Counted from the first letter of the stretch, positions 1-51,478 are shown. The stretch is DNA of 64,000 nucleotides from Stramonita haemastoma (GCA_030674155.1 CM060342.1:22446974-22510973); one strand, 5' to 3'. The notes: generated by a model from the letters alone, not told the origin. Program-made: numbers and translations.

Positions 1-178
1 CACCTCCACTCAAAGCCTCTCAACCTGCACTCCAACTTCTTGTTCACTCTCCACGTTTCTGCACCATATAGAAGAGTTGAGCGGACGTTTGAACGGTATA
101 CATCGAGTCTTGTCCTAGTGCTGAGGGTTGCAGGGCTCCAGACCTTCTTCAGTTTCTTGAATGCCTGAGTGAAGGAAG
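1..178 (-). mobile_element. LINE reverse transcriptase fragment, cut by window edge
   Basis: On the minus strand one frame reads continuously from about 178 to base 1. It contains AFKKLKKVWSPATLSTRTRL, then STLLYGAETWRVNKKLE and RLRGFE. This is the typical region just after the catalytic core of non-LTR retrotransposon reverse transcriptases, where LLYGAETW is a recurrent motif. The remaining RT would lie to the right on this strand, but the frame runs straight into the 20-bp tandem array. The fragment is therefore truncated at its N-terminal side. It is a different element from the RT at 37-38 kb, whose equivalent motif is LLYGCESWTL. Whether the element continues left of the window cannot be seen. 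Confidence 0.8.
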
Positions 179-184
179 CCCGTG

Positions 185-430
185 CAGTGAAGAAAAGGTC
201 CTAGTTGCAATGAAAAAGCTCCCACAGTGATGAAGAAGTCCTTGCAGTGATGAAGAAGTCCTTGCAGTGATGAAGAAGTCCTTGCAGTGATGAAGAAGTC
301 CTTGCAGTGATGAAGAAGTCCTTGCAGTGATGAAGAAGTCCTTGCAGTGATGAAAAAGTCCTTCCAGCAGTGATGAAAAAGTCCTTCCAGCAGTGAACAA
401 TTCCTTGCAGAGACAAACAAATCTTTGCAG
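185..430 (-). repeat. 20-bp minisatellite tract, first copy
   Basis: About ten copies of a 20-bp monomer, CTTGCAGTGATGAAGAAGTC on the plus strand, are near identical between 240 and 350. They degrade into 23-bp variants near 360-400. The minus strand is open in all three frames because 20 is not a multiple of three and the monomer has no stop there. The peptide cycle runs through DFFITARTSSSLQGLLHHCK. The plus strand contains TGA in every monomer. The tract abuts a LINE fragment on its left, which looks like a breakpoint. Confidence 0.9.
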
Positions 431-654
431 CAATACAGAGTTAGATTTCCCAGAAAATATATAATCTGTTAAATGCTACATCAATACACAGATTATTAGT
501 CACAAAACACAAACTATACTGCCATAAGTTCATGATTTTTTTTCAGTGGACAATTGGAAAGATTTCATGAGTTGAAATATGAATTTCAAAATGGATACAA
601 AGTGTATAATGGTGACAGAAACACACACAGAGTCAGACTTTTTTGTGAGCCTCC
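431..654. other. Array unit boundary segment
   Basis: This non-tandem stretch resembles the short segment that separates the 20-mer block from the pyrimidine block in every array unit, for example 7997-8150 and 22984-23140. It shares the words around CACAGATTATTA and ACTATACTGCCAT but is more diverged here. No gene is visible. Confidence 0.6.
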
Positions 655-897
655 AACTTTCTATTTTTTCCCATCTTTTTTTCTTTCTTTTTTTTCCTTT
701 TCTTTTTTCTGTTTGTTTTTGTGGGGCCCCCAACCACCTTTTCTTTTCCCCTTTCTTATTTTGTGGGGCCTCCAACCACCTTTTCTTTTCCCCTTTTCTT
801 TTTTTTCTTTTTTTTGTGGGGCCCCCAACCACCTTTTCTTTTCCCCTTTCTTTTTTTGTGGGGCTTCCAACCACCCCTTTTCTCCACATTCCGATTT
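655..897. repeat. Pyrimidine block repeat (copy S0)
   Basis: Three to four copies of a unit whose core is GTGGGGCCYCCAACCACC, followed by CTTTTCTTTTCCCC and a variable T-rich spacer. The plus strand is almost wholly pyrimidine between cores, so the minus strand is purine rich. It would read as lysine-rich peptides such as GEKKRWLEAPQKK. That reading is probably incidental. The same block opens every higher-order unit of the array. Confidence 0.9.
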
Positions 898-1202
898 CCT
901 GAGGTACAATATTCATGTCAAATACTTTTAACACTCATTCAAAAACCAAAACTCAAACCCATCAAACAAAGTGATGTACCAAACAACAGATAACACAAGT
1001 ATGAACGTACACAAACTGAAGTACCATCATTAAGACAGGAGCAGTCTGTCTTGAAGATGCATGAACATTACTAATGCAGCTGTGGTGCTGGTTTTACAAC
1101 AGAACCAAGAGTGTTGCTCCCAATATGTCAGGGCTACTAATCTATGATAATCCCTAATAACATGCACAGATTTTCTTGCACCACAACCTATTCCCTATGT
1201 AT

Positions 1203-2375: not shown

Positions 2376-2439
2376 TCAAACAGATGGTGATAATTAAGTC
2401 TAAACGATAATAAGGTGTTGGCGTTGTCAACCTCTTAAT

Positions 2440-2987
2440 AACGATGAAATCTTTGCGTCAAAAAGTCCCAGCGATGACAAAGTCCCAGCGATGATGAAGT
2501 CTTGGCGTTGGTGAAGTCTCTTGTGTTGAAAAAGTGTGTATGTTGAAAAAGTCTCTTGTGTTGAAGTTGAAGAAATCTTTGTGTTGAAAAAGTCTTGGAG
2601 AAGATGAAGTCTGGTGTAGATGAAGTCCTGGCTTTGATGAAATCTTAGGGATGATGAAGTCTTGGTGTTGAGATAAAATCTAAGTGATGATGACGTCTTG
2701 ACTTTGTAAAAGTCTCGGCGATGATTAAGTCTTTGTGTTGAGGTCTTGGCACTGATAAAATCTTGGCGTAAGTCTCAGTGATGAAGTCTTCGCTCTCAAG
2801 AGTCTCAGTGTCAATGATGTCTTGGTGATGATGAAGTCCTGGTGATGATGAAGTCCTGGTGTTGATGAAGTCCTGGTGTTGATGAAGTCCTGGTGTTGAT
2901 GAAGTCCTGGCGACGATGCAGATATTGAAGACTTGGCAAAGATGACGTCTTGGCGATGGTAAAGTTTTGAAGTCCAGGTGGCAAGTC
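2440..2987 (-). repeat. 17-bp tract, variant B, exon-like block
   Basis: Loosely ordered monomers of about 17 bp with the theme GATGAAGTCTTGG, mixed with GTTGATGAAGTCCTG units between 2860 and 2910. On the minus strand the block begins after a strong acceptor-like sequence ending CATCTTCAG at 2988. It is paralogous to blocks ending at 14297, 43870 and 51478, all of which keep the AG. Monomers are more degenerate here than in other units. Confidence 0.75.
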
Positions 2988-3540: not shown

Positions 3541-3544
3541 GATT

Positions 3545-4089: not shown

Positions 4090-4860
4090 CTTGCAGGGAA
4101 CCAGTGAATGACTTTTTTTAAGTTCTGGCAATGACAGTGACCGTGCAGCAATAAAGAAGACCTTGCAGTGATGGAGAAGTCCCTGTGGTGATGGAAAAGT
4201 CCTTGCAGTGATGGAGAAGTCCCTGTGGTGATGGAAAAGTCCCTGTGGTGATGGAGAAGTCCCTGTGGTGATGGAAAAGTCCTTGTGGTGATGGAGAAGT
4301 CCCTGTGGTGATGGAGAAGTCCCTGTGGTGATGGAAAAGTCCTTGCAGTGATGGAGAAGTCCCTGTGGTGATGGAAAAGTCCTTGCAGTGATGGAGAAGT
4401 CCCTGTGGTGATGGAAAAGTCCCTGTGGTGATGGAGAAGTCCTTGCAGTGATGGAGGAGTCCCTGTGGTGATGGAAAAGTCCTTGCAGTGATGGAGAAGT
4501 CCCTGTGGTGATGGAAAAGTCCTTGCAGTGATGGAGAAGTCCCTGTGGTGATGGAGAAGTCCCTGTGGTGATGGAAAAGTCCCTGTGGTGATGGAAAAGT
4601 CCCTGTGGTGATGGAAAAGTCCCTGTGGTGATGGAAAAGTCCCTGTGGTGATGGAGAAGTCCCTGTGGTGATGGAGAAGTCCCTGTGGTGATGGAGAAGT
4701 CCCGGTGGTGATGGAAAAGTCCCTGTGGTGATGGAAAAGTCCTTGCGGTGATGGAGAAGTCCCTGTGGTGATGGAGAGGTCCCTGTGGTGATGGAGAAGT
4801 CCCTGTGGTGATGGAGGAGTCCTTGCAGTGATGGAGGAGTCCTTGCAGCGAAGTCCTTTT
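4090..4860 (-). repeat. 20-bp minisatellite, CCCTGTGGTGATGGAAAAGT type
   Basis: More than 35 copies in perfect 20-bp register. The monomers alternate between TGTGGTGATGGARAAGT and TTGCAGTGATGGAGAAGT, and blocks of the same order recur, suggesting unequal exchange of multi-monomer segments. The minus peptide cycle is FSITTGTSPSPQGLLHHHRD. The tract is continuous with the 17-mer tract on its right through a short flank containing GAAGTCCTGATGGTAATGAA. Confidence 0.92.
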
Positions 4861-5272
4861 GAAGTCCTGATGGTAATGAACTCCTGGTGATGAAAAAATC
4901 CAGGTGATGACGAACCAAGAAGTCCCTGTGATGATGAAGAAGACCAGGTGATGATGAAGATTCGGTGATGATGAAGACCTGGTGATGATGAAGTCCTGGT
5001 GATGATGAAGATCTGGTGATGATGAAGTGAATACCTGGTGATGATGAAGATCTGGTGATGATGAATACCTGGTGATGATGAATACCTGGTGATGATGAAT
5101 ATCTGGTGATGGTGAAGACCAGGTGATGGTGAATACCTGGTGATGATGAATACCTGGTGATGATGAAGACCAGGTGATGATGAAGACCAGGTGATGATGA
5201 ATACCTGGTGATGATGAATACCTGGTGATGATGAAGACCAGGTGATGATGAAGTCCTGGTGATGATGAAGAC
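4861..5272 (-). repeat. 17-bp minisatellite, CTGGTGATGATGAAGAC type
   Basis: About 22 monomers of 17 bp. Some are extended by GTGAA to 22 bp. The minus peptide cycle is HHHQDFIITRTSSSPGL. The minus-strand start of the block lies next to TTAGTATTTTCTCCAG, a good acceptor-like sequence also present at 9515, 20265, 24211, 28585, 32018 and, in slightly altered form, 35875. Confidence 0.92.
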
Positions 5273-5621
5273 CTGGAGAAAATACTAACAGGAATAGGTT
5301 ATCATCCCAAACCAGTGTGTTTTGAGCAAGGCATTCAAAGTAAAATAATAAAAAAAGCATCAAACCAGAAGAAACAAATACTCACAGAACATTGTACAGT
5401 ACTACATTAATGCATCATGACTTTATGCATCCTGCATACCTACCACACATTTTTACAATTTTATTAAAAGTACATTTCTGTTTATTAAAAAAATTCAACT
5501 TTTTTTTTTATAGAATATACAGAATCAGAATGTGAATTTCACTAATCTTTAAGAGCAGTGTCATAGGATACTTTATTAACAGGTTGTATTTATTTTTCAT
5601 TTATTTATCTATTTATTATTT

Positions 5622-5935
5622 CATATCAAGGATAATGGAATAAGCACTCATGTGCTTTGTTTATATCCAGTCCCTGTGTGAAGTTTTGTTAATCTTGTCA
5701 TCTGTTCCAACTGGCACACAATGGCCTACTCTTACAATAACTGAAACAGAATTTAACGTGTGCGCAAGATTTCTGCGTTCATTCACACACAGGGCCTCGG
5801 TTTATAGTCTCATCCGAAGGACTTGACTTGGCACTGATGTTCACTCCTAGGGTAAAATCCCCTCGAACGGGAATTGAACCTGGGTCGTCAAATTGCAAGC
5901 GCAATGTTCTGACTACTAGGCTATCCCGGTGATGT
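5622..5935 (-). mobile_element. tRNA-headed SINE shared by alpha units
   Basis: Read on the minus strand it starts near GGGATAGCCTAGTAGTCAGA (A-box) and has GGTTCAATTCCCG (B-box) about 50 bases on. It continues through CCTTCGGATGAGACTATAAA and GTAGGCCATTGTGTGCC, and ends in ATCCTTGATATGAAATAATA. Nearly identical copies sit at the same place in units A3, A4 and A6. Units A2, A5 and A7 lack it at the matching position. Confidence 0.9.
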
Positions 5936-5999
5936 ATCAGATCCTGTACACTAAAGTTCTTTGTATAAAGAATGAACAGGAAAGGTGTCAGAACCATAC

Positions 6000-6174
6000 C
6001 TTGAAGGGAAGCAGTGACAGTTGGCTTTTCAAGTCCTGATGATGAAGATGTTGTCGAGATAAGCAAGTCCTTGTGACAGTGAAGAAGTCCTTGTGGCAGT
6101 GAAGAAGTGAAGAAGTCCTTGTGGCAGTGAAGAAGTGAAGAAGTCCTTGCGATCAAAAAATTCTGGCGAAGATC
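6000..6174 (-). repeat. Short 20-mer block, exon-like (A1 block 3)
   Basis: A 175-bp block bounded on the minus strand by an acceptor-like TTTATGTGATTGCCAG and a donor-like TTCAAG/GTATGG. It contains a few monomers of AGTCCTTGTGGCAGTGAAGA. Homologous blocks in A4 and A6 are also 175 bp, and A3 is 195 bp, exactly one monomer longer. Confidence 0.8.
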
Positions 6175-6592
6175 CTGGCAATCACATAAACAGGAATATA
6201 TTATTATCTCCAAAGGCCGATCTGTGTAGGTGATGAGCAAGCTATTTAAACATAAATTGTCGCATGATGATCAATGGTGATGGGGATAATGTAATGATGC
6301 TGCTGTGGAAGTGCATCCGCTTTGAGACTACTTGACTGGGTTGTACCTAAGAAATCACAGATCATAACAAAGTTGTACACTACTGTATCATGACTTTCAC
6401 TCTGTCCATTATCTTGCTACTTTTAAAAAAAATTTAAGCTCTACATTTTTATGTACTACAATATAGAGAATATAAATCTAAAAAATCTTCCAGAGCTGTA
6501 TCATCAAAGACCTTCATCACACAGTGCTATCAGATACAGTACAGTCTTACCTGTTTACGTAAAAATGAATACAATGGGAGACAGAACCATAC

Positions 6593-6806: not shown

Positions 6807-7169
6807 CTGTCAAAGAAAAAAATAAGAATACATTGGCTGGAAAGAGAAAGTTGGACCAGCTTATAAACAAGGAAATTAAAAGAATGAAATCAATAACACC
6901 AAGAAAAACCAAATCACAGACCATTATAACATTAATGCATCCTGACTTCATCCAGTCTCCTTTCTTGTGTCACATTGACAGAATTCTATTCAGTACATTT
7001 CTATTTATTGAAAACTCATTTAGAATACACACAGCATCAATTTTATCAACTTCCAAGAGCAGTGTCACCAATGTACTTTATCAACAGTGTCTTACCATAT
7101 CCAGTTCATTTAAAATTGTTAAAAAAACAAAAAACAAAAAAATGAAGAGGACAGGCAACAGAACTACAC

Positions 7170-7996
7170 CTTGAAGGAACTAGTAAAAGATGATTTCTGA
7201 AGTCCTGGCAATGAAGGCATCTTTGCAGTGATGAAGAAGATCTTGAAGTGATGAAGAAGTCCTTATAGTGATGACAAAGTCCTTATAGTGATGAAGAAGT
7301 CCTTGTAGTGATAAAGACCTTGTGGAAATGATGAATTCCTTGTATTGATGAAGAAGTCCTTGTGGTGATGAAGAAGTCCTTGTGGTGATGAAGAAGTCCT
7401 TGTGGTGATGAAGAAGTCCTTGTAGTGATGAAGAAGTCCTTGTGGTGATGAAGAAGTCCTTGTGGTGATGAAGAAGTCCTTGTGATGATGAAGAAGTCCT
7501 TGTGGTGATGAAGAAGTCCTTGTGGCGATGAAGAAGTCCTTGTGGCGATGAAGAAGTCCTTGTGGCGATGAAGAAGTACTTGTGGTGATGGAGAAGACCG
7601 TGTGGCAGTGAAGAAGTCCTTGTGGTGATGAAGAAGACCGTGTGGCAGTGAAGAAGTCCTGGCAATGAAAAAGCCCTTGCAGTGAAGACGTCCTTTCAGC
7701 ACTAAAAATCCCTGACAAAGAAGATGTCCTGGCAATGAAGAAGTCCTTGCAGTGATGTGATTCTTGTGGTAATGAAAACATCTTTGCAATGAAAAAGCCC
7801 TCGCAATGAAGACATTCTTGCAATAAAGAAGTCCTTGCTCTGATGAAGTAGTCCTTGCAGCATTAAGATTGAGGCACTGAAGAATCCCTTGCACCAAAGA
7901 AGTCCTTGCCGCAACAAAAAAGTCCTTGCTGAAATGAAGAGGTCCTTGCAGTGATGAAGAAGTCCTTGCGCCAATGAAGACCCAACAGATCCAGAA
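7170..7996 (-). repeat. Long 20-mer block (A1 block 5)
   Basis: About 17 tight monomers of GTCCTTGTGGTGATGAAGAA, followed by looser relatives with GAAGTCCTGGCAATGAAGAA and CAATGAAGACATTCTTGCAA. Donor-like sequence on the minus strand is TTCAAG/GTGTAG. The far boundary near 7996 (CTGATAG/ATTCTG) is a weak acceptor candidate without a pyrimidine tract. Confidence 0.85.
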
Positions 7997-8149
7997 TCTA
8001 TCAGTAACTGATCAATACATAGATTATTACTTATCCAGGACAGATCAATACTCAAGATTATCAGGCAGTAACACAAACCATACTGCCATCTTAAGACCAT
8101 CTTATGGTGACTTCCACACACATACAGTCAGATGTATACTCCAACCTAT

Positions 8150-8735
8150 TTTTTCACATTCTTTTTTTCTTTTTTTTTTCTTTTTTTTTGTGGGGCCCCC
8201 AACCACCTTTTCTTTTCCCCTTTCTTTTTTTTTCTTTTTTTTTCTTTTTTGTGGGGCCTCCAACCACCTTTTCTTTTCCCCTCTTTTTTTGTGGGCCTCC
8301 AACCATCTTTTCTTTTCCCCTTTCTTTTTTTTATGGGGCCTCCAACCACCTTTTCTTTTCCCCTTTCTTTTTTTTTTCTTTTTTTGTCTTTTTTATGGGG
8401 CCTCCAACCACCTTTTCTTTTCCCCTTTTTTTTTATGGGGCCTCCAACCACCTTTTCTTTTCCCCTTTTTTTTTTTATGGGGCCTCCAACCACCTTTTCT
8501 TTTCCCCTCTTTTTTGTGGGGCCCCCAGCCACCTTTTCTTTTCCCCCTTCTTTTTTTTCATCTTTTTTTTTTCCTTTTTTTGTGGGGCCCCCAGCCACCT
8601 TTTCTTTTCCCCCTTCTTTTTTTCAACTTTTTTTTTTCTTCTTTTTTGTGGGGCCCCCAACCACCTTTTCTTTTCCCCCTTCTTTTTTTTCATCTTTTTT
8701 TTTTCCTTTTTTTGTGGGGCCTCCAACCACCTCAA
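8150..8735. repeat. Pyrimidine block repeat (A2)
   Basis: About eleven cores of GTGGGGCCYCCAACCACC, or ATGGGGCCTCCAACCACC, each followed by TTTTCTTTTCCCC and T-runs of variable length. Core sequences are nearly invariant while spacers vary, so the core may be the element kept by gene conversion. Purine/pyrimidine strand asymmetry is extreme. Confidence 0.92.
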
Positions 8736-8819
8736 TGATGGAGTCCTTGCAGTGATGGAGTCTTTTTGAAGTCCTGATGGTGATGAACCTCTGGCGATGA
8801 AGAAATCCAGGTGATGAAG

Positions 8820-9514
8820 AACCAAGAAGTCCCTGGTGATGATGATGAAGTCCTGGTGATAATGAAGTCCTGGTGATGATGAAGTGAAGACCTGGTGATG
8901 ATGAAGTCCTGGTGATGATGAAGTCCTGGTGATGATGAAGACCTGGTGATGATGAAGTCCTGGTGATGATGAAGTGAAGTCCTGGTGATGATGAAGTCCT
9001 GGTGATGATGAAGTGAAGATCTGGTGATTATGAAGTGAAGACCTGGTGATGAAGTCCTGGTGATGATGAAGATCTGGTGATGATGAAGTGAAGACCTGGA
9101 GATGATGAAGTGAAGACCAGGTGATGATAAAGTGAAGTCCTGGTGATGATGAAGACCAGGTGATGATGAAGACCTGGTGATGATGAAGACTTGGTGATGA
9201 TGAAGTGAAGACCAGGTGATGATGAAGTGAAGACCAGGTGATGATAAAGTGAAGTCCTGGTGATGATGAAGTGAAGACCTGGTGATGATGAAGTGAAGAC
9301 CAGGTGATGATGAAGTGAAGACCAGGTGATGATGAAGACCTGGTGATGATGAAGACCTGGTGATGATGAAGTCCTGGTGATGATGAAGACCTGGTGATGA
9401 TGAAGACCTGGTGATGATGAAAATCTGGTGATGATGAAGTGAAGACCTGGTGATGATGAAGACCTGGTGATAATGAAGTCCTGGTGATGATGAAGTCCTG
9501 GTGATGATGAAGTC
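8820..9514 (-). repeat. 17/22-bp minisatellite block (A2 block 2)
   Basis: Some 37 monomers of CTGGTGATGATGAAGAC, about a third extended by GTGAA. The minus-strand boundary at 9515 is TATTTTGTCCAG. The minus frames stay open through HHHQDFIITRTSSSPGL cycles. Confidence 0.9.
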
Positions 9515-9788
9515 CTGGACAAAATACTAACAGGAATAGGTTATAATCCCAAACCAGTGTGTTTTGAGCAATGCATTCAAATGAAAAATAATAAAATAGC
9601 ATCAAGAAAGAAGACACAAATACTCACAGAACATAGCACACTCAAACTTCTATAGGATATATAGAATGTGAGTACCACTTATCTTTCAGAGCAGTGTCAT
9701 AGAATACTTAATTAACAGGGCAGTATCAGATCCTGTACACTAAAGTTCTTTGTGTAAAGAATGAACAGGAAAGGTGACAGAACCATAC

Positions 9789-9895
9789 CTTGAAGGGAAG
9801 CAATAACAGTTGGCTTTTCATGTCCTGGTGATGAAGATGTTGTGGCGATGAAGAAGTGAAGAAGTCCTTGCGATCCAAAAATTCTGGCAAAGATC
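9789..9895 (-). repeat. Short block with decayed acceptor (A2 block 3)
   Basis: The shortest version of block 3, with almost no tandem monomers left. The donor-like side TTCAAG/GTATGG is intact. The acceptor side has lost the AG (GATTGCCGGGATC). Confidence 0.7.
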
Positions 9896-10252
9896 CCGGC
9901 AATCACACAAACAGGAAGACATTATTATCTCCAAAGGCCAATCTGTGCAGGTGATGAGCAAGCCATTTAAACATAAATGAAGCAAGAAAAAATCTAAAAA
10001 GAAATCCAAGATGATAGTAGTACTACACTAATGTATCATGACCTTCACTCTGTCTATTATCTTGCTACATTTTTTTTTTTTACAATTTTAATGTCTACAT
10101 TTTTATTTACTACAATATACAAAATATAAATCTAATAAATCTCCAAGAGCTGTATCATCAAAGAAATTTATCACACAGCGCTATCATATACAGTAAAGTC
10201 TTACCTGTTTACGTAAAAAAAAAAAAAAAATGCGATGAGTGACAGAGCCATG

Positions 10253-10535
10253 CCTTGCAAGGAACAAGTAAAAGTTGACTACTGAAGTGCTGGTGTTGAT
10301 GAAGTCCTGGTGTTGATGAAGTCCTGGTGTTGATGAACTGCTGGTGTTGTTGAAGTCCTGGTGTTGATGAAGTCCTGGTGTTGATGATGTCCTGGTGTTG
10401 ATGAAGTGCTGGTGTTGATGGAGTGCTGGTGTTGATGAAGTCCTGGTGTTGATGAAGTCCTGAGAGTGGTACAGTTCAGGCGATGGTAATGACTGAAGTC
10501 TGAGAGATGATGGAATATCTTGCAATGATGAAATT
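10253..10535 (-). repeat. 17-mer block GTTGATGAAGTSCTG (A2 block 4)
   Basis: About eleven monomers, several with TGCTGG in place of TCCTGG. The acceptor-like sequence is a T-run followed by GACAG. The donor is changed to GC (TTGCAAG/GCATGG). Confidence 0.8.
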
Positions 10536-10924
10536 CTGTCAAAAAAAAAAGAATACTAGCTAAAAAGAAGAAATTGTACCAGATTATAAGCAAAGCAATT
10601 AAAACAAAATGAATGAAATGATATCAAGAAGAACCAAATCATCACAGACTACAATACAGTTTAACATGAATGCATCATGACTTCATGCAGTCTTCTTCCT
10701 TGTGACTTTTTTTTTTTTTTTTACAATTCTATTCAGTACATTTCTATTTATAGAAAACTCAACTTATTTAGAATATACACACAGCATCAATTTCATTAAC
10801 TTCCAAGAGTAGTGTCATCAATGTACTTTATGAACATCGTGTCACCAAATCCAGTCCAATTTCAGTTGTTAAAAAAAAAAAAAAAAAAAAAAAAGAATGA
10901 AGAGGACAGGTGACGGAACCATAC

Positions 10925-11824
10925 CTTGAAGGGAACCAGTAAAAGATGATTTCTGAAGTTCTGGCAATGAAGACATCCTTGCAGTGATGAAGTAGTCTGA
11001 ATGTTGACATTGGAAGTCCTGGTGATGAAAAAGTCTTTGCAGTGATGAAGTAGTCCTTTCAGCAATAAGATTCTTACAGCAAGAAGCCCATGTAGTGAAG
11101 AAGTCCTGGCAATAAAGAAGTCCAAGCAATGAAGAAGTGCTGGTAATGAAGAAGTGCTGGCAATGAAGAAGTGCTGGCAATGAAGAAGTCTATGCAATGA
11201 TGAAGTGCTGGTAATGAAGAAGTGCTGGCAATAAAGAAGTCCAAGCAATGAAGAAGTGCTGGTAATGAAGAAGTGCTGGCAATCAAGAAGTGCTGGCAAT
11301 CAAGAAGTCCTGGCAATGATGAAGTGCTGGCAATGTTGAAGTCCTGGCAGTGGTGAAGAAGACGTCCTTGCAGTGATGAAGTTGTCCTTTCAGCGATAAG
11401 ATTCTTACAGCAATAAAGAATCCCTGGCAATAAAGAATCCCTGGCAAAGAAGAAGTCCTTGCAGTGAAGAAGTCCTGGCAATGAAGAAGTCCTTGCAGCG
11501 ATGCAATTCTTGTGGTAATGAAAACATCTTTGCAATGAAGAAGCCCTCGCAATGAAGACATTCGTGCAATAAAGAAGTCCTTGTACTCATGAAGTAATCC
11601 TTGCAGCAATAAGATTGAGGCACTGAAGTATCCCTTGCACCAAAGAAGTCCTTGCAGAGATGAAGTCCTTGCAGTGAAGAAGTCCTTGCAGCAATTAAGA
11701 AGTCCTTGCCACAACAAAAAAGTCCTTGCTGAGATGAAAAGTCCTTGCAGTGATGAGGAAGTCCTTGCAGAGATGAAGTTGTCCTTGCTGAGATTAAAAG
11801 TCCTTGCAGTGATGAAGAAGTCCA
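10925..11824 (-). repeat. Long 20-mer block, left part (A2 block 5)
   Basis: Diverse monomers including AATGAAGAAGTGCTGGC (17 bp) and GTCCTTGCAGTGAAGAA. The 17-bp GTGCTGGCAATGAAGAA subfamily dominates 11120-11330. The donor-like junction on the minus strand is CCCTTCAAG/GTATGG. The block is split by a GATA microsatellite and resumes at 12033. Confidence 0.8.
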
Positions 11825-11826
11825 AT

Positions 11827-11895
<69 letters not shown>

Positions 11896-11906
11896 GAGAT
11901 AGAGAG

Positions 11907-11957
<51 letters not shown>

Positions 11958-39166: not shown

Positions 39167-39217
<51 letters not shown>

Positions 39218-39218: not shown

Positions 39219-39571
39219 CTGGAAAGAGAAAATTGGAGCAGCTTATAAACAAGGAAATTAAAACGAAATGAAAGAAATGACACCAAGAAGAGCCAAATCA
39301 TCACAAACTATAGTACCATATGATATAAATGCATCTACACTTCATGCAGTCTCCTTTCTTGTGACATTTTTTTTTACAATTCTATTCCGTACATTTCCAT
39401 TTGTAGAAAACTCAACTTATTTAGAATATACACAGCATTAATTTCATTAACTTCCAAGAGCAGTGTCATCAATGCACTTTATCAACAATATGTTACCAGA
39501 TCCAGTTCAATAAGAAATGTAAAAAAATAATATATATAAAAAAAAGAAGAGGACATGCAGCAGAAGCATAC

Positions 39572-42125: not shown

Positions 42126-42294
42126 ACCCATCAAAGTAAAAAATACACATATATAAAACAAAGAAAAGAAAAAAGAAATAAGAGAGCCTGAACCAATTGG
42201 GTACACTGTCCATAGGATCTTTCTTTTCCTAGAAAAAATGAAAAAGTGGCGAAGACATTGATGTTGAAGCCTTTGTGATAATAAAGTCCAGAAA

Positions 42295-42800
42295 TCATGG
42301 CAATGAGGTATATTCCAGTTCTGTGAAGATACTTTGGTATGGCAATGAGATATGTTCCAGTTCTGTGGAGATACTTTGGTAGGGCAATGAGGTATATTCC
42401 AGTCCTGTGAAGATACTTTGGTATGGCAATGAGGTATATTCCAGTCCTGTGGAGATACTTTGGTATGGCAATGAGGTATATTCCAGTCCTGTGGAGATAT
42501 TTTAGTATGGCAATGAGGTATATTCCAGTCCTGTGGAGATACTTTGGTATGGCAATGAGGTATATTCCAGTTCTGTGGAGATACTTTGGTATGGCAATGA
42601 GGTATATTCCAGTCCTGTGGAGATACTTTGGTATGGCAATGAGGTATGTTCCAGTCCTGTGGAGATACTTTGGTATGGCAATGAGGTATATTCCAGTCCT
42701 GTGGAGATACTTTGGTATGGCAATGAGGTATATTCCAGTTCTGTGGAGATACTTTGGTATGGCAGAAAGGTATATTCCAGTTCTGTGGAGATACTTTGGT
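42295..42800. repeat. 42-bp repeat array, about 12 copies
   Basis: Period 42 bp, a multiple of three. The unit begins ATGGCAATGAGGTATATTCC and ends ACTTTGGT. Variation is concentrated at TTCTGTGG/TCCTGTGG/TCCTGTGAAG. Plus frames give MAMRYIPVLWRYFG and minus frames give IPKYLHRTGIYLIA. Because both strands are open in more than one frame, openness is not evidence of coding. Confidence 0.95.
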
Positions 42801-43870
42801 GATGTTGATGTTGATAAACTCTTAATGATGATGAAGTCTTGGCACTGATAAAGTCTTGGCGTTGATAAAGATTTGGATTTGATGAAGTCTTGGTGATGAT
42901 GAAATTCTGGTGGTAGCATTGACAGGTTTATATATTCTGGTGATGATTAAAATCCCGTGGAGATGTTTAGGTGATGACAAAGTCTCAGCAATGATGAAGT
43001 CTTCATGATAATGAACTTTTGATAATGACAAAGACTTGCCACTTGACAATGACGAAGTCTTTGCGTTAATGTAATGAAGTCCTGGTGTTGATGAAGTCTT
43101 GGTGATGATAAAAATCTTGGTGCTGATGAAGTCTTAAAAGTTAAAGTTAAAGTCTGTCCCGAGCCATAAGGCTCATCAGGCCGGTGCTTATCCCGGTTTC
43201 TGTGGCGTTAAGCGACTGAGAGTCATAGACTCCCCCCTGGATAGGACGCCAGTCTATCGCAGGGTTAACCCCCAACACAAGGTTGGTACCCCTTTTACAC
43301 CTGGGTGGGGTGAGTGATGAAGTCTTGGTGATGATAAAAATGTTGATGATAAAAATCTTGGTGTTGATGAAGTCCTGGTGTTGATGAAGTCTTGGTGATG
43401 ATGAAGTCCTGGTAATGATAAAATCTTGGTGCTGATGAAGTCTTGGTGATGATAAAAATGTTGGTAATGATAAAAATCTTGGTGTTGATGAAGTCCTGGT
43501 GCTGACGAATCTTGGTGATGATAAAAATGTTCGTAATGATAAAAATATTGGTGTTGATGAAGTCTTGGTGATGATGAAGTCTTGGTGATGATGAAATCTT
43601 GGTGATGATAAAAATCTTGGTGCTGATGAAGTCCTGGTGATGATTAAGTCCTGGTGTTCATGAAGTCTTGGTGATGATGAAGTCTTGGTGTTGATACATG
43701 AAGTCTCGACCATGACGAAGTTTTGGCATTGACAAAGCTTTGGCAATGATGAAGTTTTCAAAATGATGAAGTCCTGGAGATGATGAAGTCTTGGCAACAA
43801 TGCAGATGGTGATGTCTCAGCAAAGATGAAGTCCTGACAATGGTGAAGTTTTCAGTCCTGGTGATAAGTC
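42801..43870 (-). repeat. 17-bp tract, variant B, with nested SINE fragment
   Basis: Monomers of TCTTGGTGATGATGAAG and TCTTGGTGATGATAAAAA. The tract is interrupted at 43137-43318 by an unrelated element. The acceptor-like TTCTTATTGTCCTCAG sits at 43871. Confidence 0.85.
43137..43318. mobile_element. Dispersed repeat fragment within the B tract
   Basis: GC-richer than its surroundings. It contains GTCTGTCCCGAGCC, GGTGCTTATCCCGGTTTCTG, CTGGATAGGACGCCAGTC and ACACCTGGGTGGGGTGAGTG. This matches, from general knowledge, a repeat family widespread in marine invertebrate genomes. It is absent from the homologous tract of S1, so it inserted after duplication. Confidence 0.7.
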
Positions 43871-44404
43871 CTGAGGACAATAAGAACATAAATACATTAT
43901 CATCTCAAAACAAAACTTTTAGTGTGTGGATATTTTTAAAACATTTTACCTTATAGCTATCATCACATTGATAAAAAATCTCTTTGAAAAATCTCCCTCT
44001 CATCTACATTTGATGCAATTTCCTTTTTCTCTTTTTCCAGCACCTTCCTCCCCCTCCTTTCCCACACAGTGGAGTTTGTAACGAACAAAACAAAATTATA
44101 TACTGACATCAAGAAAGAAGATGCACATACACACAAAACATAGCACAGTATAACATCAATGCATCATAACTTTATGTATCCTACATACCTGTCATACTTT
44201 TTTTTTCAGTTTTATTAGATACATTTCTGTCTCTAAAAAAAAAAACAAAAAAAAAAACTCTACTCTTTAGAATACACATTATGTGAATGTCACTAATCTT
44301 CAAGAGCTGTGTTATCAGGCACTTTATCCACAGGGTGATATCAGATCAAGTACATACAACGCTATTTATACAAAGAATGAAGAGGATAGGTGACACAACC
44401 ATAC

Positions 44405-44537
44405 CTTGAAGGAAACTGGTAAAACTTGACTTTTGAAGTCCTGGCAATGAAGATCTTGCAGCAATGAAGAAGTCCTTGCAGTGATGAAGAAGTCCTTGCA
44501 GTGATGAACAAGTCCCTGAGAAGTTCTGGCAATGATC
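44405..44537 (-). repeat. Short 20-mer block (41-46 kb unit, block 3)
   Basis: Boundaries GATTGCCAG and TTCAAG/GTATGG are intact. It contains two to three GTCCTTGCAGTGATGAAGAA monomers. Confidence 0.75.
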
Positions 44538-44914
44538 CTGGCAATCACACATAAAGGAATAGCTTGTTATCTAAAAATAAAACAACAACAAATCTGTGTA
44601 GGTGATGAGCAAACCATTTAAAATTAAAGGAATAAAATATCAAGAAGGAAATTATCGCATATTGCAGTACAGTAGTAATGTATTATGGCCTTCATTCTGC
44701 TCTTTATCTTCATACATTTTTTTTTCTTTTTACAATTTTAATCTCTGTATTTTTATTTACAACTCCCTCCCCCAACTTCAGAATATACAGAATGTAAATC
44801 GTAAACAATTTCAAGAGCAGTATCATCAGAGAACTTGATCACACAGTGCCATCTGATCTAGAGCAGTCTAAACTGTTTGCATATAAAAATGAATGCAACG
44901 AGTGACAGAACCTT

Positions 44915-45178
44915 CTAAAGTCCCGATGTTGATGAAGTCCTGGTGTTGATGAAGTCCTGGTGTTGATGAAGTCCTGGTGTTGATGAAGTGAAGTCCTGGT
45001 GTTGATGAAATCCTGGTGTTGATGAAGTCCTGGTGTTGATGAAGTCCTGGTGTTGATGAAATGAAGTCCTGGTGTTAGTGAAGTCCTGGTGTTGATGAAG
45101 TCCTGGTGTTGATGAAGTACTGAGGGTGATGATGACTGAAGTCAGAGAGATGATGAAATATCTTGCGATGATGAGATT
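44915..45178 (-). repeat. 17-mer block with lost donor (41-46 kb unit, block 4)
   Basis: About 12 monomers of TCCTGGTGTTGATGAAG. The acceptor-like CTTTGACAG is present. A deletion has removed the donor-like junction: GACAGAACC is followed directly by TTCTAAAGTCC. Confidence 0.8.
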
Positions 45179-45564
45179 CTGTCAAAGAAATATATAAGAA
45201 TACATTATTACCTGGAAATAGAACATTGGAGCAGTTTATGAACAAGGCAATTAAAAGAAATGAAATAAACAACACCAAGAAGAACCAAATCATCACTGAC
45301 CACAATACAGTATAACATTAATGCATTCTGACTTCATGCAGTCTCATTTCTTGTAACATTTTTTTTTACAATTCTATTCAGTACATTTCTATTTACAGAA
45401 ATCTCAACTTATTTATAATACACACAGTGTTAATGTCATTAACTTCTAAGAGCAGTGTCACCAATGCACTTATCAACAATGTCTTACCATATCCAGTTCA
45501 TTTAAGATTTTTTTAAAAAAAAGAAAAAAGAAAAGAATAAAAAGGACAGGCAACAGAAACATAC

Positions 45565-46300
45565 CTTGAGGGGAACCAGTAAAAGGTGATTTCTGAAGTC
45601 CTGGCAATGAAGGCATCCTTGCAGTGATGAAGAAGATCTTGAAATGATGAAGACGTCCTTGTGGTGAAGATGTCCTTGATGTGATGAAGTCCTTGTAGTG
45701 ATGAAGAAGTCCTTATAGTGATGACAAAGTCCTTGTATTTATGAAGATGTGTTTGTGGTGATGAAGAAGTCCTTGTGGCAATGAAGAAGTCCTTGTGGCA
45801 ATAAAGAAGTCCTTGCAGTGATGAAGTCCTGGCAATGAAGAAGTGCTGGCAATGAAGCATTATTTGCAATGAAGAAGTCCTTGCAATGAAGTCCTGGTAA
45901 CGAAGAAGTGCTGGCAATGATGAAGTCCTGGCAATGAAGAAGTCCTGGCAATCAAGAAGTCCTGGCAAAGAAGAAGTTCTTGCAGCGATGCGATTCTTGT
46001 GGTAATGAAAACATCTTTGCAATGAAGAAGCCCTCGCAATGAAGACATTCGTGCAATAAAGAAGTCCTTGCTCTCATGAAGTAGTCCTTGCAGCAATAAG
46101 ATTGAGGAACTGAAGAAACTCTTGCACCAAAGAAGTCCTTGCAGAGATTACGTCCTTGCAGTGAGGAAGTCCTTGCAGCAATTAGGTAGTCCTTGCCGCG
46201 ACAAAAATGTCCTTGCCGAGATGAAAAGTCCTTGCAGTGATGATGAAGTCCTTGCAGTGAGGAAGAAGTCCTTGTACCAATGAAGACCCAACAGATGGAA
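45565..46300 (-). repeat. 20-mer block (41-46 kb unit, block 5)
   Basis: Heterogeneous monomers, including AATGAAGAAGTGCTGGC types as in A2. The donor-like junction is CCTCAAG/GTATGT. Confidence 0.8.
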
Positions 46301-48344: not shown

Positions 48345-48735
48345 TAGCAGGACGGTTAAGATGTTTGCCTGCCAACAAGTAAACCGAGGTTCTTGGTTTG
48401 ATCCCCAGCCTTGTCCTTTCTTCCCAGTTTGACAAAAAAAATTGAACTAAATGTCAAAGTCCTTTGGATGAGACTATAAACGAAGGCCCTGTATGCAAAT
48501 GCATGCAGAACATTTTTGCCCATATTAAAAAGCCTGTTTCACCTTTTGGAAGTGTAGGCCATTGTGTGCTGGTGGGAACGGATGACAGAAAAACAAAACC
48601 AGCATACATACAGATGTTGTGTCTAGACACCATTCCCGAAATTAGAACGCGGCTATCTAAATGGTGGGGGGAAAAAAAGTCGCAAATGCATAAATCTCAT
48701 CACTGGTGAACCTCACAGCTGTAACCAAGGAATGG
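48345..48735 (+). mobile_element. Full-length tRNA-headed SINE
   Basis: The head is GGTAGCAGGACGGTTAAGAT (A-box) and the B-box TTCTTGGTTTGATCCCC. The body continues through TCCTTTGGATGAGACTATAA, CCTTTTGGAAGTGTAGGCCA and GGGAACGGATGACA. The 3' domain has AACGCGGCTATCTAAATGG and CACTGGTGAACC. It is the most complete plus-strand copy in the left part of the window. Confidence 0.85.
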
Positions 48736-49254
48736 GGGAAAAAGGAAAAAACTGCACACAAAATCTCACTGGAAATTTCATATACTCATGTTTGATTACT
48801 GTAAACTTCCCTTCCTCTCGTGCAAGTATATATACATACACACATTATATACATACACATACATACAAAATATATACATAATATATATTGGTTTTTCCTG
48901 TGTAACATATGTGATCAGATTATATTTTCATTATGATCTTAACACCCCCCCAAAAAAAAAAAATCAAAGTACAGTAAGTACACAGGCTAACAACATTCAG
49001 ACTATTTTCCCTGAGGTATCAAACATTGTTTCAGGGGGCCAGGGGGAGAAGGACCAAGTTTTTTGTTCACTTTTCTTTCCTTTTGTGAGGCCTCCCACCT
49101 ATTTCTTTTCTCCATATTCTTTGTTGTTTATTTGGGAAGAAAGGGAAGTGAGGTGGGGGGGGGGGGGGGGGAGAGAAGAGGTGCTAGGATACTATTTCTT
49201 TCTTTTCCTAGAAAAAAATGAAAAAGTCGTGAAGACAAAGTATTGATGTTGCAA
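48736..49254. other. Low-complexity interval before the last B tract
   Basis: Contains ATACAT-rich sequence (48825-48890), a degenerate pyrimidine core at 49085 (GTGAGGCCTCCCACC) and a run of about 16 G at 49157-49172. No gene is seen. Confidence 0.55.
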
Positions 49255-50650
49255 GTCTTTGATATAATGAAGTCTTGGTGATGATGAAGTCTTGGTGATG
49301 ATGAAGTCTTGGTGATTATGAAGTGAAGTCTTGGTGATGATGAAGTCTTGGTGATGATGAAGTGAAGTCTTGGTGATGATGAAGTCTTGGTGATGATGTG
49401 ATGATGAAGTCTTGGTGATGATGAAGTCTTGGTGATGATGAAGTGAAGTCTTGGTGATGATGAAGTCTTGGTGATGATGAAGTGAAGTCTTGGTGATGAT
49501 GAAGTCTTGGTGATGATGTATATGTAAGTCTTGTGTGATGATGAAGTCTTGGTGATGATGTGATGATGAAGTCTTGGGATGATGTGATGATAGTTTTAGT
49601 GATGATGAAGTCTTGGTGATGATGATGTGAAGTCTTGGATGATGTGATGATGAAGTCTTGGTGATGATGTGATGATGAGTCTTGTGATGTGATGATGAAG
49701 TCTTGGTGATGTTGATGGAAGTCTTGGTAAATGATGATCTTGTGATGATGAAGTCTTGGTGATGCTGTGATGATGAAGTCTTGGTGATGTGTGATGATGA
49801 AGTCTTGGTGATGATGAATGAAGTCTTGGTGATTGTGATGATGAAGTCTTGGTGATGATGTGATGATGAAGTCTTGGTGATGATGTGATGAAGATCTTGG
49901 TGATGATGAAGTCATTGGTGTAATGCTGTGATGATGAAGTCTTGGCTGATGATGTGATAATGAAGTCTTGGCGATGATGTGATAATGAAGTCTTGGTGTG
50001 ATGAGTTGTGATGATGATATGAAGTCTTGGTGATGATGTGATGATGAAGTCTTGGTGATGTGATGATGAAGTCTTGGTGATGATGTGATGATGAGGTCAT
50101 TAATGATGAAGTCTTGGTGATGCTGTGATGATGAAGTCTTGGTGATGATGTGATGATGAAGTCATCATAATGATGAGTCATGGTGATGCTTGTGATGATG
50201 AAGTCTTGGTGATGATGTGATGATGAAGTCTTCATAATGATGAAGTCTTGGAGATGATGATGTCTTGGCGATGATGTAATGTGAAGTCTTCATAATGATA
50301 GTCTTGGTGATGATAAAGTCTTGGTGATGATGTGATGATGAAGTCTTGGTGTTGATGAAGTAGTCTTGTATGATGAAGTCGTGATGATGAAGTCTTGGTG
50401 ATGATGAAGACTTGGTGATGATGTAGTCTTGGTGATGATGTGATGATGAAGTCTGGTGATGATGAAGTGAAGTCTTGGTGATGAAGTCTTGGTGATGAAG
50501 TCTTGGTGATAAAGTCTTGGTGAAAAAGTCTTGCATTAAATAAGTTTTGGATTTGATGAAGTCTTGGTGATGAAGTCTTGGTGATGAAAGTCTTGGTGAT
50601 GAAGTCTTGGTGATAAGTCTTGGTAAAGTCTTGGTGATGAAGTCTTAGCA
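49255..50650 (-). repeat. 17-bp tract, variant B, degraded register
   Basis: About 80 monomers of TCTTGGTGATGATGAAG, but unlike the tracts of A1-A7 the register is broken every few units by GTGATGATGTGATGATG fusions and single-base losses (AGTCTTGTGATG, GGGATGATG). Minus frames are interrupted by shifts. This could be natural decay at the array edge or consensus error in a long simple tract. Confidence 0.85.
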
Positions 50651-50850
50651 TTGATAAGTTTAGGATTTGATGAAGTCTTGTGATGATGAAGTTTTGGTGT
50701 AGCATTGACAGGTTTATATATATTCTGGTGATGATTAAAGTCCCGTGGAGATGTTTAGGTGACAATAAAGTCTCAGCAATGATGAAGTCTTCATGTTAAA
50801 GAACTGTTGATAATGACAAAGGACTTGCATTGATAAAGTTATTGACAAGG
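50651..50850. other. Flank shared by the B tracts
   Basis: Non-tandem sequence with GTAGCATTGACAGGTTTATA and AGTCCCGTGGAGATGTTTAG, repeated at 13680-13760 and 42910-42980. Confidence 0.7.
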
Positions 50851-51250
50851 AGGAAGTCCTGGTGGTGATGAAGTCCTGGTGTTGGTTAAGTCCTGGTGTT
50901 GGTGAAGTCCTGGTGTTGGTGAAGTCTGATGAAGTCCTGTGTTGATGAAGTCCTGGTGTTGCTGAAATCCTGATAAAGTCCTGGTGTTGATGAAGTCCTG
51001 GTGTTGATGAAGTCCTTGGTGTTGGTGAAATCTGATAAAGTCCTGGTGTTGATGAAGTCCTGGTGTTGATGAAGTCCTGGTGTTGGTGAAATCCTGATTA
51101 AAGTCCTGGTGTTGATGAAGTCCTGGTGTTGATGAAGTCTGGTGTTGGTGAAATCTGATTAAGTCCTGGTGTTGATGAAGTCTAGTGTTGATGAAGTCCT
51201 GGTGTTGATAAAGTCCTGGTGTTGATGAAGAGCTGGTGTTGATAAGTCTT
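50851..51250 (-). repeat. 17-mer block GTTGATGAAGTCCTG, degraded
   Basis: About 22 monomers with recurrent GAAATCCTGATTAAAGTCC junctions every fourth to fifth unit and several single-base deletions. The minus peptide is of the HQHQDFINTRTSSTPGL type but shifts frame. Confidence 0.85.
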
Positions 51251-51478
51251 GGCATTGAGGAAGTCTTGGTTGATGATGAAGTTTTGGCCTTGACAAAGTT
51301 GTGGCGACAATGTAGTCTTCATAATGATGAAGTCTTGGAGGTGATGAGTCTTGGCATTGAGGAAGTCTTGGAGAGATGAAGTCTTGGTGTTGACAAAATC
51401 TGGCAACAATGCAGATGGAGATGTCTCAGCTAAGATGAAGTCCTGACAATGGTGAAGTTTTAAGGCCTGGTGATAACC
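51251..51478 (-). repeat. Terminal diverged exon-like segment of the array
   Basis: In minus order this is the first array block. After a TGTTCTTATTGTCCCTCAG acceptor-like sequence, one frame reads GYHQALKLHHCQDFILAETS and onward with only loosely repeated HxQDFI motifs. It may be close to the ancestral non-tandem version of the B block. Homologous first segments at 14297 and 43870 are similarly loose. Confidence 0.6.

What the first reader, a model, noticed from the sequence alone, without database searches (positions are those of the whole stretch)
1..51478. Fifty-kilobase minisatellite array organised as repeated exon-intron-like modules
On the minus strand nearly every tandem block is bounded by a pyrimidine-rich AG and by CAAG/GTATGG. 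The acceptor-like TTTGACAG precedes all nine second 17-mer blocks except one with TTTGGACAG. TATTTTCTCCAG or a close form precedes seven 17/22-bp blocks. TTATTGTCCYYAG-type ends precede the B blocks. Internal copy number varies while the borders stay. This could be a giant gene of repeat-coding exons, a long non-coding RNA gene, or duplication of one ancestral exon-bearing module with no present function.
Basis: partly seen in the sequence, partly recalled or inferred. Interest (0 to 1): 0.9.

Follow-up and report, generated by a model that had tools for sequence, protein, structure and literature searches.

The report
Tandem noncoding gene with minisatellite exons
A 50-kilobase repeat array in an animal genome, probably a mollusc's, looks like a noncoding, spliced gene made of about ten copies of one module whose exons are stretchy repeats with fixed splice borders, resembling the mouse Dxz4 locus; no RNA has yet been checked.

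Summary
The array is real and organised as described, with corrections. On the minus strand about ten modules repeat, each with minisatellite blocks (d or e, then c, a, b) and three short spacers. A profile of spacer interiors recovers the 27 known spacers and no others. Of these 27, 24 begin GT, one GC, two have donor deletions; 26 end AG, one GG. None of 589 matched repeat-unit cores lies truly inside a spacer.

Across the four spacer classes the only invariant run of 10 or more columns is the donor. Donor columns are 9/9 invariant against 27/47 in flanks, P = 0.012; acceptor CAG 3/3 against 17/40, P = 0.09, and its AG was chosen by me. Within classes, GT/AG constraint is not significant.

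Coding is not supported. CpG depletion (0.17-0.18 against 0.53 in the flank) fits a methylated gene body.

Best reading: a spliced noncoding transcription unit built by module duplication, working like mouse Dxz4. The rival, an inherited relic with no present splicing, is almost as likely. RNA would decide.

The parts
55501..56000 (-). candidate promoter region: one of several local CpG peaks (25 CpG, o/e 1.10); first-exon donor candidate TACAAG|GTAAGA at 55644
   Evidence: top-scoring donor of the minus strand between 51.6 and 58 kb; that it is a promoter is inference
49230..51478 (-). module 1 e block (17-mers); acceptor TTATTGTCCCTCAG at 51478; low end approximate
45565..46289 (-). module 1 c block; donor CAAG|GTATGT at 45564
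45179..45564 (-). module 1 spacer c-a (intron-like)
44912..45178 (-). module 1 a block; usual donor deleted, AAG|GTTCTG remains at 44911
44538..44911 (-). module 1 spacer a-b
44405..44537 (-). module 1 b block
43871..44404 (-). module 1 spacer b-e
42230..43870 (-). module 2 e block, with a 42-bp tandem repeat and a SINE-like insert at about 43130-43300; low end approximate
39572..40140 (-). module 2 c block (high end approximate); donor at 39571
39028..39571 (-). module 2 spacer c-a
38598..39027 (-). module 2 a block
36832..38597 (-). module 2 spacer a-b, enlarged by a LINE with an open reverse-transcriptase frame
36670..36831 (-). module 2 b block
35875..36669 (-). module 2 spacer b-d
35190..35874 (-). 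module 3 d block (low end approximate)
33869..34655 (-). module 3 c block; conserved pre-c sequence at 34656-34807
33505..33868 (-). module 3 spacer c-a
33342..33504 (-). module 3 a block (163 nt)
32919..33341 (-). module 3 spacer a-b
32744..32918 (-). module 3 b block
32018..32743 (-). module 3 spacer b-d
31400..32017 (-). module 4 d block (low end approximate)
30237..30680 (-). module 4 c block (high end approximate)
29781..30236 (-). module 4 spacer c-a
29496..29780 (-). module 4 a block (donor CAAA|GTATGG)
29115..29495 (-). module 4 spacer a-b
28953..29114 (-). module 4 b block
28585..28952 (-). module 4 spacer b-d
27820..28584 (-). module 5 d block (low end approximate)
26074..26754 (-). 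module 5 c block
25711..26073 (-). module 5 spacer c-a (ends ATTGACAG)
25531..25710 (-). module 5 a block
25113..25530 (-). module 5 spacer a-b
24938..25112 (-). module 5 b block
24211..24937 (-). module 5 spacer b-d
23420..24210 (-). module 6 d block (low end approximate)
22182..22969 (-). module 6 c block
21820..22181 (-). module 6 spacer c-a
21606..21819 (-). module 6 a block
21188..21605 (-). module 6 spacer a-b
20993..21187 (-). module 6 b block
20265..20992 (-). module 6 spacer b-d
19780..20264 (-). module 7 d block (low end approximate)
16540..19216 (-). module 7 c region, enlarged by internal G-rich arrays and pieces of e-type unique sequence; donor at 16539
16056..16539 (-). module 7 spacer c-a (ends TTTGGACAG)
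15716..16055 (-). module 7 a block; usual donor deleted, a GTAAGT lies at 15720
15327..15715 (-). module 7 spacer a-b
14812..15326 (-). module 7 b block (515 nt)
14298..14811 (-). module 7 spacer b-e
13440..14297 (-). module 8 e block (low end approximate)
10925..12150 (-). module 8 c block (high end approximate), interrupted by an (ATAG)n stretch at 11827-12001
10536..10924 (-). module 8 spacer c-a
10254..10535 (-). module 8 a block; donor is GC (CAAG|GCATGG)
9896..10253 (-). module 8 spacer a-b, altered at both ends (GC ... GG)
9789..9895 (-). module 8 b block; a further CAG lies 12 nt inside
9515..9788 (-). module 8 spacer b-d
8720..9514 (-). module 9 d block (low end approximate)
8150..8735 (-). 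module 9 G-rich array (GGTGGTTGGAGGCCCCAC and A-rich units), the example; similar arrays precede most c blocks
7984..8135 (-). module 9 pre-c sequence, the least diverged of the non-repeat regions compared between distant modules
7170..7983 (-). module 9 c block
6807..7169 (-). module 9 spacer c-a
6175..6592 (-). module 9 spacer a-b
6000..6174 (-). module 9 b block
5273..5999 (-). module 9 spacer b-d with a SINE-like insert at about 5580-5936
4090..5272 (-). module 10 fused d-c block, the one d block with both an acceptor and a donor (donor 4089); the spacer after 4089 is not recognised by the interior profile
2410..2987 (-). fourth, divergent e block with acceptor ATCTTCAG (low end approximate)
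170..430 (-). c-like 20-mer block at the window's left edge

Best explanation
The region is a tandem array of about ten diverged copies of one exon-intron module on the minus strand, belonging to a noncoding, spliced transcription unit. An ancestral unit (short intron plus a repeat-bearing exon) was duplicated to give a three-intron module with a pitch of 3.8-7.7 kb; modules then duplicated further, some recently (spacers 95-99% identical) and some long ago (61-91%). Exons grow and shrink by minisatellite slippage in 17-, 20- and 22-nt units whose ends read AG|G, in phase with the splice sites, while introns stay free of units. Proposed mechanism: transcription from a promoter outside the array (candidate near 55.5-56.0 kb), splicing at CAAG|GTATGG and YAG borders, and a long repeat-rich RNA of variable exon content, as in mouse Dxz4. 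Shown here: module structure, donor conservation between classes, no continuous coding frame, CpG depletion. Inferred: transcription, splicing, promoter, order of duplications. What the RNA or its transcription does (nuclear retention or chromatin organisation, by analogy with Firre and Dxz4) is conjecture.
For: The interior profile (built from 26 of the 27 introns) finds 27 introns, all flanked by repeat blocks, and no solo copy in the window. Across four diverged intron classes the donor is the only invariant run of 10 or more columns; donor nonamer 9/9 against 27/47 flanking columns, P = 0.012, or P = 0.036 without the two-member b-e class. Acceptor CAG 3/3 against 17/40, P = 0.09; pooled 12/12 against 44/87, P = 6e-4. 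0 of 589 repeat-unit cores (at most one substitution) truly inside introns, which cover 27% of the array. Pyrimidines 73% just upstream of the acceptors against 52% in intron interiors. The 25 border donors scored rank at the 91st-100th percentile of 2424 minus-strand GTs, and 26 acceptors at the 83rd-100th of 3043 AGs (approximate recalled matrix). CpG o/e 0.17 in the array and 0.18 in introns shorter than 560 nt against 0.53 in the flank. Pre-c divergence 0.087 against 0.165 and 0.210 in introns of the same four distant modules. Exon lengths mixed modulo 3 and stops in all frames of five c blocks argue that an RNA, if made, is noncoding.
Against: No RNA evidence at all. The acceptor AG of each class was picked because it is an AG, so its invariance is partly built in; column tests treat columns as independent. 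Within-class comparison gives only weak constraint: GT 1 change in 6 columns, AG 1 in 6, donor nonamer 7 in 27 against 11.5 expected, P = 0.11; an earlier version that dropped gapped columns gave P = 0.04 for donor plus AG. On the all-class tree the GT pair and the AG pair are each unremarkable (73 of 440 windows as low) and the donor nonamer is in the lowest 15 of 433. The b and d acceptors are weak: 15 of 27 acceptors scored 1.4-2.8, no better than the best repeat-unit AGs at the starts of c blocks, 1.8-4.6. Five of 25 border donors scored only 1.1-1.6. Three of nine a-b introns carry lesions, one at both ends. Most c blocks lack an acceptor and most d/e blocks a donor, so the exon chain is unresolved. 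SINE-bearing b-d introns have CpG o/e 0.43, and other CpG peaks nearly as high as the candidate promoter's lie at 52.5-53.0, 55.0-55.5 and 61.5-62.0 kb. CpG depletion could also come from methylation of repeats.
Confidence: 0.45

Rival explanations
1. Relic array: an exon-bearing module of a once-spliced gene was duplicated as a complex satellite (macrosatellite). The splice-like borders are inherited and nothing is spliced today.
For: All borders are homologous by descent; recent modules share them trivially. Within-class constraint at GT/AG is not significant. Lesions have accumulated in a-b spacers, at both ends of one of them. b and d acceptors are weak. A LINE, SINE-like inserts, an (ATAG)n expansion and a d-c fusion suggest free rearrangement.
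Against: The donor bases stayed invariant through the older divergence of four classes more than their flanks, P = 0.012. Low CpG and the low divergence of pre-c would need other causes.
Confidence: 0.37
2. Separate short noncoding transcription units in tandem (an alternative architecture within the noncoding reading): each starts just upstream of c (pre-c acting as promoter and 5' end), splices c-a-b-d/e and ends in or after d/e. This explains why c has only a donor and d/e only an acceptor.
For: c blocks without a convincing acceptor and d/e blocks without a conserved donor; pre-c diverges about half as much as introns between four distant modules.
Against: No AATAAA or ATTAAA in six of ten d/e-to-c segments. 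In module 10, d and c form one uninterrupted block with both splice borders, which suggests they are two ends of one exon. Pre-c may be homogenised by gene conversion: module 7 pre-c is 99% like modules 3, 5 and 6 while its spacers are 61-84%.
Confidence: 0.27
3. A giant protein-coding gene with repeat-coding exons (readable in long stretches because the main repeat units lack stops on the minus strand).
For: Long open stretches on the minus strand. 16 of 17 a and b blocks tested have at least one open frame. In the joined putative exons of eight modules the longest ATG frames are 163-504 codons, the longest in module 8 running from c through a and b into d; a frame with a hydrophobic start runs from pre-c into c in modules 3, 5, 6, 7 and 9.
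Against: Exon lengths are 0, 1 or 2 modulo 3 without pattern. All three frames of all five c blocks tested hold stops, the c start being assumed. The pre-c frame stops after 31 and 10 codons in modules 1 and 8, was not found in module 4, and ends at different lengths (86-237) elsewhere. No relatives: 0 hits among 840 candidates for the 237-codon frame of module 6, and 0 among 5598 for the 394-codon d-c frame.
Confidence: 0.05

Closest known systems
Mouse Dxz4 macrosatellite RNA (PMC3491370; passages read)
   Same: About seven diverged (>5%) monomers of some 3.8 kb, each with a VNTR; a transcript from a promoter outside the array splices to the same 163-nt exon within each monomer, with some exons skipped.
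   Different: Here each module has three introns, not one exon, and the exons themselves are the minisatellites. CTCF binding, X linkage and transcription were not tested. No sequence relation is claimed.
Firre lncRNA (PMC4820808; abstract and passages read)
   Same: Locus-specific repeats that make up exons (RRD: 7 of 13 human, 11 of 23 mouse exons) of a noncoding RNA, with other repeats intronic.
   Different: Firre's RRD is, from recall, a longer repeat shared between exons, not tandem 17-22-nt units inside each exon, and Firre is, from recall, not a regular tandem array of modules.
[quoted passage not shown] abstract read)
   Same: Splice signals duplicated together with exon sequence; AG|G unit ends here recall the AGGT model.
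   Different: That work concerns a single new intron in a coding plant gene. Here whole exon-intron modules are multiplied, and how the first intron arose is unknown.
Complex satellites / macrosatellites without known transcripts (review literature seen only as search listings)
   Same: Tandem higher-order modules with internal short tandem repeats.
   Different: From general knowledge, satellites are not expected to carry splice-like borders kept between diverged classes; not tested here on other satellites.

Membership tests
Dxz4-like spliced macrosatellite lncRNA (by analogy) | tandem array of kilobase-scale diverged modules with internal VNTR | tested here: met
   about ten modules, spacers 61-99% identical between eight modules compared, repeat blocks of variable length
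Dxz4-like spliced macrosatellite lncRNA (by analogy) | same exon with splice-site sequences in every module | tested here: met
   27 introns; GT 24/27 plus one GC, AG 26/27; splicing itself not observed
Dxz4-like spliced macrosatellite lncRNA (by analogy) | promoter outside the array | tested here: inconclusive
   CpG peak 55.5-56.0 kb, not the only one, and a strong donor at 55644; no start-site data
Dxz4-like spliced macrosatellite lncRNA (by analogy) | noncoding spliced transcript present | not testable with these tools
   no RNA data in reach; noncoding character supported
Dxz4-like spliced macrosatellite lncRNA (by analogy) | CTCF binding | not tested
   no motif scan or ChIP was done
Giant protein-coding repeat gene | continuous reading frame through spliced exons | tested here: not met
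   mixed exon lengths modulo 3; stops in all frames of five c blocks; no frame kept between eight joined modules
Giant protein-coding repeat gene | relatives among predicted proteins | tested here: not met
   0 hits for two translated frames in a 5.8-billion-protein collection that does hold gastropod records
Known structured RNA family | match in Rfam at gathering score | tested here: not met
   0 matches in the 64-kb window
Splice-site constraint (functional introns) | donor bases more conserved than neighbours between diverged classes | tested here: met
   9/9 against 27/47, P = 0.012; P = 0.036 with three classes
Splice-site constraint (functional introns) | acceptor bases more conserved than neighbours between diverged classes | tested here: inconclusive
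   CAG 3/3 against 17/40, P = 0.09, with the AG chosen in advance
Splice-site constraint (functional introns) | the same among copies within a class | tested here: inconclusive
   rates lower than interior but P = 0.11-0.28 for GT, AG and donor nonamer; only exon ends reach P = 0.02

The most novel reading that the evidence does not exclude
An invertebrate noncoding gene whose roughly thirty exons are themselves expandable minisatellites held between fixed splice borders: RNA length and repeat content evolve by slippage inside exons and by module duplication, while splicing is kept. Because each unit ends in CAG or CAAG followed by G, every unit may also act as a spare splice site, giving a family of length-variant RNAs. 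It would be a non-mammalian, independent counterpart of Dxz4 and Firre.
Probability: 0.3. Interest if true: 0.75.

Novelty: new variant of a known kind. Interest (0 to 1): 0.5.

Why it matters
If transcribed, it shows that the Dxz4/Firre design, a tandem-repeat locus giving a spliced repeat RNA, arose outside mammals, and with a twist: the repeats are the exons. It would give a natural test of how splice borders survive minisatellite slippage, and of whether repeat-exon RNAs do the same jobs in unrelated animals. If it is a relic, it is a clear case of how splice-like structure can persist in satellite DNA and mislead gene finders.

Tried and rejected
Protein-coding gene: rejected. Rfam and tRNA scans: 0 matches. 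Functional intron between d/e and c: no conserved donor/acceptor pair found. Tandem transcription units each ending at a polyadenylation signal: AATAAA/ATTAAA absent in six of ten segments. A 19-nt donor-region pattern in viral contigs gave one locus, L001, whose similarity to the window is at most 25 nt: judged chance. Whole-genome search of the window's own assembly: not answered four times, so copy number elsewhere in the genome is unknown. Literature searches for minisatellite-exon noncoding genes in molluscs and elsewhere: among the rows listed (15 of 16, 15 of 369, 12 of 113, 12 of 19, 12 of 105, 6 of 28, 3 of 3) I saw no such locus outside mammals by title and abstract start; only open-licence papers were searched.

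A mollusc is inferred from recalled SINE and repeat resemblance and from named gastropod records among the 120 of 3583 reverse-transcriptase hits listed (Elysia, Plakobranchus; a fish and a lancelet name also occur).

Slips of mine: the acceptor of the module 5 a block was taken one base off (25711) and corrected to 25710 (the alignment is also used); the module 1 a-block donor was taken as 44914 or 44908 instead of 44911; the fourth e block was taken as 3004, and as 2987. Splice matrices are recalled, approximate metazoan frequencies; one donor (44914) and one acceptor (25711) dropped out for lack of GT or AG. Rows dropped before counts: the class-consensus and all-class tests use 26 of the 27 introns (module 2 a-b, LINE-bearing, left out); the within-class tests also leave out the two b-e introns (24 of 27 used); one search left out the module 5 a block. 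The table for d acceptors was cut in the output.

Full report
What the sequence is. The window is eukaryotic in character (long microsatellites, SINE- and LINE-like pieces, exon-like flanking sequence). Its left 51.5 kb is a patchwork of minisatellite blocks separated by non-repeat spacers. A self-comparison shows long alignments between distant parts: 92-95% identity for recent copies and 76-86% for many others. Read on the minus strand, the order repeats about ten times: a d or e block (17- and 22-mers), usually a G-rich array and a conserved pre-c sequence, a c block (20-mers), spacer, a block (17-mers), spacer, b block (20-/28-mers), spacer, then the next d or e block. The pitch between b-block donors is 3.8-7.7 kb.

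Check of the observation. With the GT masked, a profile of the donor side (17 seeds) finds 26 full-length sites: +1 is G in 26/26, +2 is T in 25/26, and -3 to -1 is AAG in all but one. AG-masked profiles of the acceptor classes find full-length members with AG intact for a 9/9, b 8/9 and e 4/4, counting the divergent e block at 2987; the d table was cut, so the d class, 7/7, rests on a pattern search that requires AG. Corrections: two of nine a acceptors depart from TTTGACAG, not one; c blocks lack a convincing acceptor and most d/e blocks a donor.

Is it more than homology? The 27 spacers are one family: a profile of their interiors (borders left out, built from 26 of them) finds the 27 and no copy elsewhere in the window at E <= 1e-3. 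The spacers after donor 4089 and before the acceptors at 51478 and 2987 are not recognised by it. So repeated borders are expected by descent, and the question is whether border bases changed less than their neighbours. Between the four class consensuses (26 of 27 spacers; the b-e class has two members), 193 of 380 shared columns are invariant. The donor lies in the only invariant run of 10 or more columns (-4 to +7); one other 9-column run starts 40 columns upstream. At the acceptor exactly CAG is invariant. Pooled, 12/12 border columns against 44/87 flanking ones, P = 6e-4. Apart, the donor nonamer gives P = 0.012 (0.036 with three classes) and CAG P = 0.09; since I chose an AG in each class, the acceptor result is partly built in. 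Within classes (24 of 27 spacers), changes per column are: GT and AG 0.17, donor nonamer 0.26, exon ends 0.29, pyrimidine tract 0.32, exon starts 0.35, spacer interior 0.43. This is the order expected for introns, but only exon ends reach P = 0.02. An earlier run that left out gapped columns gave P = 0.04 for donor plus AG. On the all-class tree GT alone and AG alone are unremarkable. Constraint is therefore supported for donors over the older divergence and unproven for the rest.

Strength of the sites. With an approximate recalled matrix, 25 border donors rank at the 91st-100th percentile of all minus-strand GTs of the array and 26 acceptors at the 83rd-100th of all AGs. Strong sites are somewhat commoner on the minus than the plus strand (donors 9 against 3, acceptors 11 against 6). 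Against this, the b and d acceptors score 1.4-2.8, no better than the best repeat-unit AGs near the starts of c blocks, and five donors score only 1.1-1.6.

Lesions. Of 27 donors, 24 are GT, one is GC, and two lie in deletions that happen to leave AAG|GTTCTG (44911) and CCT|GTAAGT (15720). One acceptor is GG. These four lesions lie in three introns, all of the a-b class (chance 0.029 if the three were placed at random), and one intron carries two. This could mean relaxed splicing of the a-b intron, or decay.

Repeats and borders. Of 589 repeat-unit cores matched with at most one substitution, seven overlap spacers, and all seven are the first unit of a d exon reaching two bases over the acceptor AG; none lies truly inside the spacers, which are 27% of the array. 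More degenerate units were not counted. Exon starts and units are thus in phase in the d class: each unit ends in CAG or CAAG and begins with G. Block lengths vary widely (a 163-430 nt, b 107-515 nt).

Coding or not. Lengths modulo 3 are mixed in both a and b blocks (the module 1 and 7 a blocks are counted to about the homologous border). All five c blocks tested have at least one stop in each frame, the c start being assumed. Joining the putative exons in silico gives longest ATG frames of 163-504 codons in eight modules, at different places, with no frame kept between them. A frame from an ATG in the pre-c sequence runs 126, 227, 237, 86 and 132 codons in modules 3, 5, 6, 7 and 9 but stops after 31 and 10 in modules 1 and 8 and was not found in module 4. 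Protein searches with the 394-codon d-c frame and the 237-codon pre-c frame gave no match at E <= 0.001 among 5598 and 840 candidates, in a collection that does return gastropod records for the LINE reverse transcriptase.

Signs of transcription. CpG observed/expected is 0.17 in the array and 0.18 in introns shorter than 560 nt, against 0.53 in the 12.5-kb flank; the SINE-bearing b-d introns have 0.43. In an oyster most methylated sites are intragenic and methylated genes go with high transcript abundance (PMC3840415, abstract); [quoted passage not shown] So the depletion fits a methylated gene body, though methylation of repeats would do the same. Upstream on the minus strand, 55.5-56.0 kb has 25 CpGs (o/e 1.10), and 55644 holds the best-scoring donor between 51.6 and 58 kb; three other flank windows reach o/e 0.98-1.04. 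The pre-c sequence diverges 0.087 between four distant modules against 0.165 and 0.210 for the c-a and a-b introns, with one of the pairs the other way round (modules 1 and 4: pre-c 86%, a-b 89%). Gene conversion is a possible cause, since module 7's pre-c is 99% like modules 3, 5 and 6.

Architecture. Two chains are possible. In one, d/e, G-rich array, pre-c and c form one long exon, as the fused module 10 block (5272-4090, both borders intact) suggests, and a single long transcript runs from outside the array. In the other, each module is its own unit, with c first and d/e last. The first makes the G-rich arrays and inserted elements exonic; the second lacks AATAAA/ATTAAA in six of ten segments. 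I lean to the first, which is also how mouse Dxz4 is transcribed.

Comparison. Mouse Dxz4 (PMC3491370, passages) has about seven diverged 3.8-kb monomers with an internal VNTR; RNA from an external promoter splices to the same 163-nt exon in each. Firre (PMC4820808, abstract and passages) shows that exonic local repeats can act as a nuclear retention signal. The present locus works, if it works, like these; no sequence relation to either is claimed, and its exons being the minisatellites is the new point.

Verdict. Observation partly confirmed, with corrections; interpretation partly supported: noncoding spliced array 0.45, relic 0.37, coding 0.05, the rest something not thought of. The separate-units model (0.27) is an alternative architecture that overlaps the noncoding reading and is not added to these.

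Noticed in passing
window 37121-38503 (-): A 460-codon open stretch with a LINE reverse-transcriptase frame sits in the module 2 a-b intron, same strand; listed hits include named gastropod records (Elysia, Plakobranchus).
   Followed up: partly
window 61138-61303 and 63224-63352 (-): Two exon-like open stretches, one ending in a stop, that look like the C-terminal end of a protein gene lie upstream of the array on the same strand; gene not identified.
   Followed up: partly
window 42290-42800 and 13485-13568: A 42-bp tandem repeat inside two e blocks, about a dozen copies in one and two in the other.
   Followed up: no
window 5580-5936 and, by length, the b-d introns at 20992, 24937 and 32743: A SINE-like insert in the b-d intron of module 9; three other b-d introns of 726-728 nt align with it and probably share it, marking those modules as duplicated after its insertion.
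   Followed up: partly
window 8150-8735 and similar arrays: G-rich arrays with the unit GGTGGTTGGAGGCCCCAC plus A-rich spacer precede most c blocks; their role is unknown.
   Followed up: no
window 11827-12001: An (ATAG)n microsatellite of 175 bp has expanded inside the module 8 c block.
   Followed up: no
window 8000-8135 (-) and homologues: The pre-c sequence carries two AAGATGG motifs (like the YY1 core, recalled) and an ATG with a hydrophobic short frame, broken in some modules.
   Followed up: partly
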